From positions 1-52,632 of IMG/VR virus record IMGVR_UViG_3300048014_000039: DNA of 52,632 nt; one strand, 5' to 3'. The stretch's first letter is position 1; every line of letters starts with the position of its first letter. Below are positions 9,310 through 17,014 of the stretch, one piece after another. A program made the translations under genes and the position numbers. The DNA comes from a virus. The notes below the pieces were generated by a model. It searched no databases and was not told the DNA's origin. It was given only the letters and a program-made list of their open reading frames with translations.

Positions 9310-10605
9310 TTACCTCTTGGATAGCGCTTCACGAAGCCAAGGAAACTCTCGACCGAACCGGGATCGCAGCCGCCAGCTATTGGCGTGCGAGAAATGGCCC
9401 CCGTAGCTTGAGCACACCGATCGCAGCTGCTCGAGGTCTGATCGGTGTGCAACGATGCGGGCGTCACGCACGTGGCGACGCCGCCAGGCGTGCAGCTTCG
9501 TCCGGCAATGTCCGATGACGCGGCGGCGCACCAGCTTGTGCGTCGGGAAAATGACGTAGCCCAGAAAGTCAGCGCCGGCGGTGAGAGGGCGCAGCTTGAC
9601 GTCGGCCTTCAGTTCGAGGCGCAGATCCTCCCGCAGGAAGGTCTCGATCGACGCCTGCCAGGCCTCGAGCTGCTCGCGGCTCCGATGGACCAACACGAAG
9701 TCGTCGACGTATCTCAAAAAGCGCGGGGCGCTCAGCGTGCGCTTGACGAACTGATCCAGTCGATCGAGATACACGTTCGCAAAGAACTGACTCGACAGAT
9801 TGCCGATCGGGATGCCGCAGCCGGCCGGTGCCTGGTCCAGGCGCTTGTGGTTCGGTACGCGAGCCCGCTCCGCCGTCGTGCAGGCGAAAGTAACACCGGC
9901 CTCGAGCGGTGAGCGGCGCAGCAGCGCGTGCACGGTGTGGCGACATTCTACTGGCAGACCGCGGCGCTCCATTCGGGCTTTCAGCATCGCGTAGAGCGTC
10001 GGCCGATGGATGCGGTTGAAGAAGTTCTTGATGTCGAGCTGTAGATAAAATCCGCCACCTTGGCCGCTATCGACCTCCCTCATGAACCCCTGCAGGCGTG
10101 TCACTGCGGCGTGGGTGCCCTTGCCACGGCGGTTCGAGAAGCTGTCGAAGATAAACCCGGGCTCGTAGATCGCCTCGAGCTGCGGCACGATCCAGTGATG
10201 CACGATGCGGTCGGCAAAGTCGGGCGCGTGGATCTCGCGAGCCTTCGGCGCCGTGGCGATAAAGCAGGTGGTGGGTCCGGGCTGCCAGGTGCCGATCGTC
10301 AGTTCGCGCTCAAGGCGCAGCAGCCCGTCGATCCATTGGCTGTCGAAAGATAGTTGATTCGGGCTCGGCTTCTTGCCGCGCCGCGCGCGGCGCCAAGCCG
10401 CGTGGAGGGCGCGAAAGTTCGGAGCAGAATCTTGATACTCACTGGCGCGCACCGCCCGAACAAAGTAGTCGTTGTCCTGGTTGAGCCAGTTGGCGTTGCC
10501 GTTGTCGAAATTGACATTCCAGGCGTAATCGCCAGGCGAATACGCTGTTATCCCGGACACTTGTGACCCAGCCGAGCGGCCAGAGGGGCGGCGCGGCGTT
10601 GTCAT
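9310..10605 (-). CDS. DGR reverse transcriptase (frame begins with the template repeat)
   Basis: A 431-residue frame. Residues from about 63 match DGR-type reverse transcriptases: DIKNFF (191-196) holds the first catalytic Asp, GIPIGNLSSQ (264-273) is the DGR form of motif 4, and YVDD (299-302) is the active site. FLGY and FPTHKL then give the thumb start. It copies template-repeat RNA with adenine errors into cDNA that replaces variable repeats. The ATG at 10605 overlaps the avd stop (ATGA). From this start, residues about 20-54 are the translated template repeat, in frame and without stops. An internal start after the template is possible, for example GTG in VRAS. Confidence 0.93.
   Translation of the reverse strand: MTTPRRPSGRSAGSQVSGITAYSPGDYAWNVNFDNGNANWLNQDNDYFVRAVRASEYQDSAPNFRALHAAWRRARRGKKPSPNQLSFDSQWIDGLLRLERELTIGTWQPGPTTCFIATAPKAREIHAPDFADRIVHHWIVPQLEAIYEPGFIFDSFSNRRGKGTHAAVTRLQGFMREVDSGQGGGFYLQLDIKNFFNRIHRPTLYAMLKARMERRGLPVECRHTVHALLRRSPLEAGVTFACTTAERARVPNHKRLDQAPAGCGIPIGNLSSQFFANVYLDRLDQFVKRTLSAPRFLRYVDDFVLVHRSREQLEAWQASIETFLREDLRLELKADVKLRPLTAGADFLGYVIFPTHKLVRRRVIGHCRTKLHAWRRRHVRDARIVAHRSDLEQLRSVCSSYGGHFSHANSWRLRSRFGREFPWLREALSKR
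10441..10547 (-). repeat. TR: DGR template repeat (TR)
   Basis: This 107-bp segment is the invariant template. It has 24 adenines on the coding strand, mostly in AAC/AAT and GAC codons for Asn and Asp, which gives wide amino-acid choice when A is changed. It aligns without gaps to three variable repeats. Fifty of 52 substitutions fall on these adenines. The 3' side differs from all three variable repeats by one base (plus-strand C at 10440 against G), which would separate IMH* from IMH. Confidence 0.95.
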
Positions 10606-11033
10606 GGATTTGCCTCGGAGGCGTTCCGGGAACTCAGTATCTCAGCGCGCTGCGGGGGAGGCTTATCCGCTCCCGCATTCTGGCTGTCTCGATGCTGCTG
10701 CTTTCGCCACCCTCCACACTGCTTGCCCAGGTCGGAGCACAACCGCGCCAGCATATCGAACTGCGCGAAGCTCACGAATGCTTCAATTTGCTTCCCCAGC
10801 TGCAGGCTGAGCTTCAGATCATCGACCGCCCAAATCAGCTTCGTGGTCCACGTCCCGCGATGCTGATGATCGCGCCAGGCTCGGTGGGCCAGCCGCGCGA
10901 TGCCCATCGCCTGTTCGCGAAGTTGCGTCCCGTGCGTATACTTGTGATACCGCGGGAAGCGGCGAACTGCCTGCTCAATCTCGAGCAAGAGACGTTCCGC
11001 AGCCTTTACGATTGGCGGGAGACTAAAGCTCAT
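10602..11033 (-). CDS. avd: DGR accessory variability protein (Avd)
   Basis: A 143-residue protein matching the Avd four-helix-bundle family: helices beginning IVKAAERLLLEIEQAVRRFP, REQAMGIARLAHRAWRD, WTTKLIWAVDDLKLSLQLGK and FAQFDMLARLCSDLGKQCGG. Avd forms a pentameric barrel that binds the reverse transcriptase and the template RNA. The C-terminal 30 residues are polar and probably disordered. It overlaps the target gene before it (ATGA at 11033/11030) and the RT frame after it (ATGA at 10605/10602), so the three are translationally coupled. Confidence 0.9.
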   Translation of the reverse strand: MSFSLPPIVKAAERLLLEIEQAVRRFPRYHKYTHGTQLREQAMGIARLAHRAWRDHQHRGTWTTKLIWAVDDLKLSLQLGKQIEAFVSFAQFDMLARLCSDLGKQCGGWRKQQHRDSQNAGADKPPPQRAEILSSRNASEANP

Positions 11034-11614: not shown

Positions 11615-12031
11615 CTAGTACTGACTGGCGCGCACCGCCCGAACAAAGTAGCCGCCGTCCTGGCCGAGCCAGTAGGCGCTGCCGAAGCCGAAAACGACAA
11701 CCCAGGCGCAAACGCCCGGCGAACACGCTGCTGGGGTGTTGGTCCAGTACCAATCAGAGTGGCAGCGGGGGAAGTAGCTCTTGTCGATCGCCGGCGAGTG
11801 CTTGGTGCGGTCCGCCAGCATGAAGAGCTCATCGACGGTCGGCAGGCGCCAGTCATCGAATCCCGCGACGCGCAGCTCGCCGACCGCTGACTGCGCCTTC
11901 TTCCAGGTCAGTCGCTTGGTCTCCTCGACGCTCCAGATGAGAGATGTCGTGTTGTCCAGCACGGCGACCCATTCGGTGGATTCATCGCTGAGTTTCGCGC
12001 CGTCGGCGCCGACCTTCGTAAATCGATTCAT
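11615..12031 (-). CDS. DGR target protein 2 (DUF1566-like, VR2)
   Basis: A 138-residue protein with a DUF1566/C-type-lectin-like fold: TSLIWSVEETKRLTWKKAQS, FDDWRLPTVDELFMLAD, WYWTNTPAA. The variable C-terminus reads CAWVVVFGFGSAYWLGQDGG and then YFVRAVRASQY, ending right after the repeat. The start at 12031 overlaps the stop of the upstream gene (ATGA). The frame could reach 12073. It lies 21 bp before target 1. No signal peptide is seen. The repeat encodes the likely ligand-binding face by analogy with other DGR targets. Confidence 0.88.
   Translation of the reverse strand: MNRFTKVGADGAKLSDESTEWVAVLDNTTSLIWSVEETKRLTWKKAQSAVGELRVAGFDDWRLPTVDELFMLADRTKHSPAIDKSYFPRCHSDWYWTNTPAACSPGVCAWVVVFGFGSAYWLGQDGGYFVRAVRASQY
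11624..11730 (-). repeat. VR2: DGR variable repeat VR2
   Basis: Gap-free alignment to the template gives 17 adenine-site changes (11 A to G and 6 A to T on the coding strand) and one other change, at the position that also differs in VR1. Confidence 0.95.
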
Positions 12032-16347: not shown

Positions 16348-16553
16348 GCGGCACCTCGAATCGCGATGGCCGCTGCTGCTCGAATACCGTCGATCAGCGC
16401 CTGTTGCTCACGTTCCGCGCGGTGGTCCGCGTGCCAGCGCGCGCGCACGTCGTCGTGTTCGGCTTGGTGCGCTGCGCAGAAGCGAACCCACTCGTGACCC
16501 TGTTGATTCGTTCCCGATTGGCAGCCGCAAATCTCGCGTGTTTTCTTGCTCAT
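16344..16553 (-). CDS. Small His/Cys-containing protein
   Basis: A 69-residue protein starting MSKKTREICGCQSGTNQQGH. It has CGC, and CAAHQAEHDDVRARWHADH, which could bind metal, followed by an alanine-rich helix. The ATG overlaps the stop of DGR target 3 (ATGA), so the two are coupled. Confidence 0.6.
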   Translation of the reverse strand: MSKKTREICGCQSGTNQQGHEWVRFCAAHQAEHDDVRARWHADHRAEREQQALIDGIRAAAAIAIRGAA

Positions 16554-17014
16554 CCGGAATGCCCAATGGCCAATGACTGACTGGCGCGCACCGCCCGAAC
16601 AAAGCAGTCGCCGCCCTGGCCGAGCCAGCCGGCGAAGCCGAGAGCGAAACCGACAAACCAGGCGCAAACGCCAGGCGAATACGCTGCTGCGACTCCGGTC
16701 CAATACCAGTCCGACTTGCAATTCGGAAAGGCGGTGGTGTCGATCGCCGGATTGCACCTGCAATAGTCGACCAGCGCGACGAGCTCAGCCACGGTGGGTA
16801 ATCTCCAGTCATCGAACCCGGCGGCGCGCAGCTGTTCGCAGTGTGTTTTGGCAGCGCTCCAAGTCATCCGTGCGGTCTCTCCGGCATCCCACATCAGCCC
16901 GGTCGTGTTATCCACTACGGCAACGTGAGCGCCGCGTGTGGCTTGGCCTTTCGCATTCAGCTTTGTGAAGCGAACCTGCGTACGAGCGCTTCGCTTTTGC
17001 CGGGCGCTGCTCAT
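16550..17014 (-). CDS. DGR target protein 3 (DUF1566-like, VR3), remote from the cassette
   Basis: A 154-residue protein with the DUF1566 pattern TTGLMWDAGETARMTWSAAK, FDDWRLPTVAELVALVDY, SDWYWTG. The C-terminal repeat reads CAWFVGFALGFAGWLGQGGD and then CFVRAVRAS, with nine residues after it. It resembles target 2 more than target 1 in the constant part (FDDWRLPTV). It lies about 4.5 kb upstream of the cassette on the same operon strand, and is the third gene from PL. No signal peptide is visible. Confidence 0.88.
   Translation of the reverse strand: MSSARQKRSARTQVRFTKLNAKGQATRGAHVAVVDNTTGLMWDAGETARMTWSAAKTHCEQLRAAGFDDWRLPTVAELVALVDYCRCNPAIDTTAFPNCKSDWYWTGVAAAYSPGVCAWFVGFALGFAGWLGQGGDCFVRAVRASQSLAIGHSG
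16580..16686 (-). repeat. VR3: DGR variable repeat VR3
   Basis: Gap-free alignment to the template gives 19 changes, all at template adenines (11 A to G, 7 A to T, 1 A to C on the coding strand). It is the cleanest and most diverged of the three repeats and the farthest from the RT. Confidence 0.95.

What the first reader, a model, noticed from the sequence alone, without database searches (positions are those of the whole stretch)
10434..10605. Template repeat translated in frame at the start of the RT reading frame
The avd stop and an RT ATG overlap (ATGA at 10605-10602), and from that ATG the frame runs through the template without a stop into the RT. The template encodes the same peptide frame as the variable repeats. 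Ribosomes would then cross the template RNA, or the RT starts at an internal GTG/other codon. This could link RT production with template availability.
Basis: partly seen in the sequence, partly recalled or inferred. Interest (0 to 1): 0.75.

Follow-up and report, generated by a model that had tools for sequence, protein, structure and literature searches.

The report
Reverse transcriptase translated through its template
In this phage mutation cassette the enzyme's own messenger is read straight through the RNA stretch that the enzyme copies, and both lie inside one conserved RNA fold, so a given RNA molecule probably cannot be messenger and template at the same time.

Summary
On the minus strand the avd stop and the RT ATG overlap (ATGA, 10605-10602). 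The RT frame is open through the template repeat (TR, 10549-10436) into an RT core that begins right after it. This is a fixed arrangement: in 80 of 80 sequences (79 IMG/VR relatives and the window) the RT frame is open from the upstream start through the TR, and 20 of 20 genome loci agree. One exception appeared among 20 further contigs. Six lineages carry a -1 shift before the TR and a +1 shift after it, so the continuous frame is kept while the peptide is not; AlphaFold2 leaves that segment unstructured. Unexpectedly, the same nucleotides form a strongly covarying RNA fold (97.4% of cells paired, 17 of 24 pairs with two-sided changes). A helix between the avd 3' end and the TR 3' edge brackets the template, and the RT Shine-Dalgarno sequence lies in a hairpin inside it. 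Translation and template folding should exclude each other on one RNA; whether this is a physiological switch is inferred. TR/RT-ORF overlap was already catalogued (DiGReF group 3, PMC3521204); the 5'-sided fold and conserved read-through were not found in the papers searched.

The parts
10602..11033 (-). avd ORF (143 aa); its last codons are also the 5' strands of H1, H2 and H3
   Evidence: Pfam bAvd PF22296 E 3.8e-7, 31 bits, under the curated cut-off of 40
9310..10605 (-). RT ORF, 431 aa, start ATG overlapping the avd stop
   Evidence: RVT_1; best structural match is the BPP-1 DGR RT 8ub7
9313..10419 (-). RT core (query used for relatives); residues 1-59 upstream of it are predicted unstructured
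10436..10549 (-). template repeat (TR), translated in frame
10603..10605 (-). RT start codon, inside the loop closed by H2
10613..10616 (-). RT Shine-Dalgarno-like GAGG, in the 3' arm of hairpin H3
10632..10641 (-). H1 5' strand (avd 3' end)
10434..10443 (-). H1 3' strand at the TR 3' edge (IMH*-like); brackets the TR
10624..10630 (-). H2 5' strand
10552..10558 (-). H2 3' strand, just 5' of the TR
10612..10622 (-). H3 hairpin (GCCTC/GAGGC)
10571..10597 (-). H4 (10597-10591 with 10577-10571), within the first RT codons
11055..11168 (-). variable repeat in the Lcl_C target ORF 11593-11030
11619..11732 (-). variable repeat in the Lcl_C target ORF 12073-11615
16575..16688 (-). variable repeat in a third Lcl_C target, ORF 17014-16550

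Best explanation
In this DGR lineage the RT is made as an N-terminally extended protein from the ATG that overlaps the avd stop (translational coupling), and ribosomes read the leader and the whole template repeat as the first ~57 codons (shown by comparative sequence evidence, not by experiment). The encoded peptide is a passive tail; what is selected is an unbroken frame and the RNA itself (shown comparatively). The same nucleotides fold into the template RNA: a 5' leader (H2-H4) plus a helix (H1) that pairs the avd 3' end with the TR 3' edge, bracketing the template (shown by covariation). The RT SD lies in H3 and its start inside H2, so a ribosome finishing avd would open the fold and start RT, while a folded RNA would not be translated and could serve as template for RT-Avd (inferred). 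The read-through rests on stronger evidence than this either/or use.
For: Open RT frame 80 of 80 and coupled in-frame start 20 of 20 genome loci. ATGA/GTGA with a purine-rich SD-like run 6-10 nt upstream in 69 of 69. Frame bookkeeping: 63 of 69 (0,0), 6 of 69 (-1 before, +1 after the TR), no other class, with six separate tree changes for the six shifted rows. Start relocated but still ATGA or TGATG and still upstream of the TR in 3 loci. RNA fold: 97.4% paired against 24-45.5% when slid, 0 of 500 shuffles as high on any measure. H1 extends to distant loci: 233 of 248 positions pair, permuted mean 206.9, 0 of 3000. SD P(unpaired) 0.12 against 0.36 in shuffles, lower in 63 of 69. N-terminal tail pLDDT about 41-51.
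Against: No expression data. H1 alone is weak in thermodynamic folding: mean pair probability 0.15, over 0.5 in 9 of 69, and 0.03 in the window. L233, a contig with Ns, has the leader ATG out of frame. Many SDs are GGGG-type rather than GAGG. 72 of 78 loci do have some in-frame start between the TR start and core+45, so an internal start cannot be excluded in each single locus. No synonymous constraint was seen in the first 50 core codons, so no RNA element was found downstream of H1. The helices were derived from the alignment on which they were counted. A separate template transcript is possible.
Confidence: 0.78

Rival explanations
1. Expression plumbing only: RT lost a separate start because the bases after the TR are constrained, and now uses avd-coupled initiation; the RNA fold serves templating and has no regulatory role in translation.
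For: All facts about frame and fold fit; relatives in the wider group start RT at the TR edge or inside the TR.
Against: The SD sits in a covarying hairpin (H3) inside the fold and is predicted less accessible than in shuffles in 63 of 69 loci.
Confidence: 0.4
2. Template and messenger are different transcripts: a promoter inside avd makes a template RNA that is never translated, and the long mRNA never serves as template.
For: Not tested here; DiGReF (PMC3521204, section 13) assumed separately transcribed RT and TR RNAs.
Against: The fold's 5' strands lie in the avd 3' end, so such a transcript would still carry the leader and could still be translated from the ATG.
Confidence: 0.25
3. The RT starts inside or after the TR and the open frame upstream is accidental.
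For: GTG 10452 in the window; 72 of 78 loci have some in-frame start between TR start and core+45. The +1 frame is also often open (44 of 80).
Against: 6 of 78 loci lack any ATG/GTG/TTG there and 4 of 78 also lack CTG/ATT/ATC/ATA. Six compensated frameshifts and the relocated overlapping starts have no reason to exist under this view.
Confidence: 0.05
4. The TR-encoded peptide has a function of its own in RT (for example contact with Avd or RNA).
For: The leader peptide (consensus MTxPRYPxGCAAGSQV) is conserved.
Against: The nucleotides stay conserved where the frame is shifted; six lineages encode an unrelated peptide there; pLDDT under 50 for residues 5-43.
Confidence: 0.06

Closest known systems
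BPP-1 DGR of Bordetella phage
   Same: Order avd-TR-RT on one strand, Avd-like protein, A-specific TR/VR differences, RT closest to bRT.
   Different: In BPP-1 the TR and a spacer lie between avd and brt and are not part of brt, and the structured spacer is 3' of the TR (PMC12875486, passages). Here there is no such spacer, the structured leader is 5', and RT is read through the TR. The leader models gave no plus-strand hit in BPP-1 (L162).
DiGReF structural group 3
   Different: That paper classed the arrangement and inferred that spatial arrangement is irrelevant; the section read does not describe frame conservation, coupling to avd or an RNA fold.
Burkholderia phage Magia and Pseudomonas phage LPPA56 DGRs
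   Same: TR lies within the open RT frame (L165 TR -103..-12, frame open to -240; L164 TR -135..-31, open to -363). In Magia the annotated RT CDS covers the TR.
   Different: Outside the clade in the tree and without a leader-model hit, so a separate lineage.
Retron msr-msd RNA
   Same: Works like it in one respect: a long-range helix brackets the copied RNA (a1/a2 inverted repeats; recalled, not from a call).
   Different: Not a retron: A-specific template/variable repeats, Avd, Lcl_C targets, DGR-type RT; no msr/msd was sought.

Membership tests
Diversity-generating retroelement | DGR-type reverse transcriptase | tested here: met
   RVT_1; bRT 8ub7 best by sequence and by fold, TM 0.89 on the target; YVDD in the translation
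Diversity-generating retroelement | TR/VR pairs differing at template adenines | tested here: met
   14, 18 and 20 A mismatches against 2 others each
Diversity-generating retroelement | VR at the C-terminus of a target protein gene | tested here: met
   three Lcl_C (PF07603) targets with the VR at their 3' ends
Diversity-generating retroelement | Accessory Avd | tested here: met
   bAvd PF22296 E 3.8e-7, below the curated cut-off (31 against 40 bits); position between target and RT
Diversity-generating retroelement | Mutagenic retrohoming | not testable with these tools
   needs experiment
BPP-1-type template RNA (structured 3' spacer) | structured spacer between TR and RT | tested here: not met
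   TR-to-core gap about 8-29 nt in the first set; no synonymous constraint in the first 50 core codons; conserved structure is 5' of the TR
DiGReF group 3 | TR overlaps an end of the RT ORF | tested here: met
   whole TR inside the RT ORF
Retron | msr/msd RNA and msDNA | not tested
   considered only as a functional parallel of H1

The most novel reading that the evidence does not exclude
Each avd-RT transcript of these DGRs is a one-RNA switch. RT-Avd binds the 5' leader, stabilises H1-H3, occludes the RT SD and so turns its own messenger into template; avd-coupled ribosomes do the reverse. In the wider group the RT SD (GGAG), and in some loci the start codon, sits in the H1 3' strand instead, a second way of placing RT initiation inside the template fold.
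Probability: 0.35. Interest if true: 0.85.

Novelty: new variant of a known kind. Interest (0 to 1): 0.7.

Why it matters
The template RNA of DGRs is usually drawn as non-coding, with its structured part 3' of the TR. Here the template is coding, the structured part is 5', and a covarying helix brackets the template at its 3' (priming) edge. That gives a testable account of why the TR and VR 3' edges differ (the TR edge pairs with avd), a defined RNA model with which to look for DGRs, and a simple way in which a mutator could limit itself by making messenger and template compete.

Tried and rejected
Chance openness: rejected. Conserved internal start: rejected. RNA spacer inside the RT core coding region: sought by synonymous-codon conservation, not found. 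Known RNA family: only two sub-threshold Rfam matches, inside avd and a target gene. First frame assignment by longest VR ORF called 18 of 78 TRs out of frame; most of these were overprinted ORFs, and the alignment-based count replaced it, leaving 6 of 69. First H1 test in 9 distant loci (51 of 54 pair, shuffled mean 44.4, P 0.00015) used 3' hexamers chosen by eye; the window-maximum permutation test replaced it, and there L159 and L110 scored only 5 and 6 of 8. A narrow IMG/VR scan with L097 returned one contig and one with L102 eight; they were not used further, except that L166 shows L185 to be a copy of L097. Plasmid, E. coli and PADLOC searches were not run.

Rows dropped: L056 and L073 from the clade set (contig starts inside the element); L081 is the window itself. 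The 99 clade loci were thinned to 69 by k-mer overlap. L108 was left out of the tree. L225 and L250 of the 22 further contigs are truncated before the leader. Some of the 22 are not independent: L185 is the contig of L166, which matches L097 at 100%, and others resemble earlier loci. Near-identical rows (L076/L077) count once.

Full report
OBSERVATION. The window is one IMG/VR virus record of 52,632 bases. On its minus strand lie two Lcl_C target genes, avd and an RT, with a third Lcl_C target further upstream. The avd stop and the RT ATG share ATGA at 10605-10602. From that ATG the frame is open for 431 codons. The TR, found by comparison with three VRs, is 10549-10436, wholly inside the RT ORF. 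The last in-frame ATG/GTG/TTG before codon 110 is GTG 10452, inside the TR. The RT aligns to the BPP-1 RT (8ub7) from query residue 63 and bRT residue 14, so the core begins some seven codons after the TR. The finding is correct as written.

RELATIVES. With the RT core alone as query, 80 IMG/VR loci at 58-82% identity were fetched. A TR was found in 77 of the 80 loci plus the window (78 of 81 rows). In all 78 it ends just before the core, and the nearest upstream in-frame stop lies before the TR. In 76 of 81 rows the scripted check found an in-frame start that overlaps the avd stop. Of the other five, L042 has GTGA by inspection, L002 and L018 have ATGACG starts but no avd ORF was scored, and L056 and L073 are truncated. 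From start to core the RT frame is open in 80 of 80 (79 loci and the window), against 44 of 80 for the +1 frame and 6 of 80 for the +2 frame. Among GTDB genome contigs, 20 of 20 loci of the same clade have the coupled in-frame start; their titles name Arenimonas, Stenotrophomonas, Lysobacter, Xanthomonas, Rhodanobacter, Dyella, Dokdonella, Pseudoxanthomonas and Rudaea among others. No internal start is conserved: 6 of 78 loci have no ATG/GTG/TTG from TR start to core+45, and 46 of 78 have none after the TR.

FRAME EXPERIMENTS BY NATURE. In 69 dereplicated loci, counted from the aligned ATG column, the phase before and after a TR anchor is (0,0) in 63 and (2,1) in 6; no other class occurs. The six (L017, L031, L033, L068, L076, L087) read the TR in a different frame, Thr-rich in those shown, yet reach the RT core in frame. 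On an RT tree of 139 rows they need six changes, and the 76 'through' rows form one side of a branch with support 100 (quick method, SH-aLRT only). Their leader nucleotides still match the family model: L017, L031, L033, L068 and L076 score 103-113 bits (all five were in the alignment from which the model was built). So the RNA and the unbroken frame are kept and the peptide is not. AlphaFold2 (44 sequences) gives pLDDT 41-51 for the first ~60 residues and mostly over 85 for the core.

FURTHER CONTIGS. A scan with a profile of other members gave 80 loci, of which I tested 22 whose contig names were not among L001-L080. Two are truncated. In 16 of the other 20 the leader-anchored ATGA is in frame and open. 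In L206, L218 and L229 the avd ORF is longer and the overlap has moved to -141 (TGATG, ATGA, ATGA), still upstream of the TR and in frame. L233, whose sequence holds Ns, has the leader ATG out of frame; another ATG before the TR is in frame. Some of these loci resemble earlier ones (L185 equals L097).

THE RNA FOLD. RNAalifold on the 69-locus alignment proposed four helices. Counting on that sequence-based alignment: 97.4% of 1649 cells pair; 17 of 24 pairs show two-sided change; 200 cells have two-sided change against 39 in shuffles; 0 of 500 shuffles reach any measure; sliding the partner by 1-3 columns drops pairing to 24-45.5%. H1 pairs the avd 3' end with the TR 3' edge, across the TR. 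H2 and H4 form the leader, and H3 is a hairpin whose 3' arm is the RT SD (window GAGG 10616-10613). The start is ATGA in 67 and GTGA in 2 of 69, with a purine-rich SD-like run 6-10 nt upstream in 69 of 69, often GGGG or GGGGG rather than GAGG. Predicted SD P(unpaired) is 0.12 against 0.36 in mononucleotide shuffles, lower in 63 of 69. H1 by itself is weak (mean 0.15), so if it forms it probably needs protein or tertiary help. Caveat: the structure was derived from the same alignment on which pairs were counted.

WIDER GROUP. A covariance model of the leader (R1), then a second one (R2), matched 36 of 64 more distant loci at E <= 0.05, ten of them used to build R2, all on the RT strand. By comparing coordinates, 31 of the 36 end within 10 nt of the TR; L104, L108, L111, L112 and L115 do not. 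H1 holds there too: 233 of 248 positions pair in 31 of 34 loci tested, permuted mean 206.9, sd 3.2, 0 of 3000 as high; three loci lacked the search motif and pair 8 of 8 when it is loosened. In that group the RT start is downstream of H1 only in 12 of 34, inside the TR only in 11, in H1 in 7, and in H1 or downstream in 4. Reading RT from upstream of the whole TR is thus a feature of the close clade, while the fold is older. No Rfam family matches.

MECHANISM. Shown by comparison: coupled upstream start, read-through, dispensable peptide, conserved fold. Inferred: ribosomes on avd or RT must open H1-H3, and a folded RNA must hide the RT SD, so one molecule is either messenger or template. Whether RT-Avd uses this to limit itself is untested.

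KNOWN WORK. DiGReF group 3 already holds DGRs whose TR overlaps an end of the RT ORF; [quoted passage not shown] In BPP-1 the structured spacer lies between TR and brt, and an avd motif ends cDNA synthesis (PMC12875486, passages); a 2022 review describes the trailing RNA as the part predicted to be structured (PMC8867640, passages). The passages of PMC8144416 and PMC6642488 that I saw did not treat TR/RT-ORF overlap. The main papers on the BPP-1 RNA (Handa 2018 and 2025, Naorem 2017) and Wu 2018 are not held, so I could not check whether they describe a bracketing helix or TR-containing RT ORFs in this group. The searches behind 'not found in print' were made, listings only except for the papers named here.

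VERDICT. Real, conserved and more interesting than the single locus suggests: a new variant of the DGR, with a known overlap class, a newly described fold as far as these searches go, and a testable either/or use of one RNA.

Noticed in passing
L101:3618-3991: The leader ATGA opens a frame through the TR for 91 codons and then stops. An inverted-repeat insert (GGATACAAAATCCA ... TGGATTTTGTATGG) lies between TR and RT core, and the RT appears to start near its end.
   Followed up: partly
L206, L218, L229, about -141 from the RT core: avd stop/RT start overlap re-created about 45 nt further downstream, with avd extended to about 160 codons.
   Followed up: yes
L117, L130, L137, L144 and others, TR 3' edge: The H1 3' strand carries a GGAG SD-like run and in some loci the RT ATG itself.
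   Followed up: partly
window 10425-10455 and the VR copies: The TR edge reads AGTGAGTATC where the VRs read AGTCAGT(CAT/ACT). The invariant G in the TR would be opposite a G in H1, so the TR/VR difference falls inside the helix.
   Followed up: partly
L099:3006-4000: Leader and TR lie about 750 nt upstream of the RT, with unrelated sequence between them.
   Followed up: no
L165 (phage Magia), L164 (phage LPPA56): TR inside an open RT frame in another lineage, without the leader.
   Followed up: no
window 16550-17014: Third Lcl_C target with a VR about 5 kb from the cassette.
   Followed up: no
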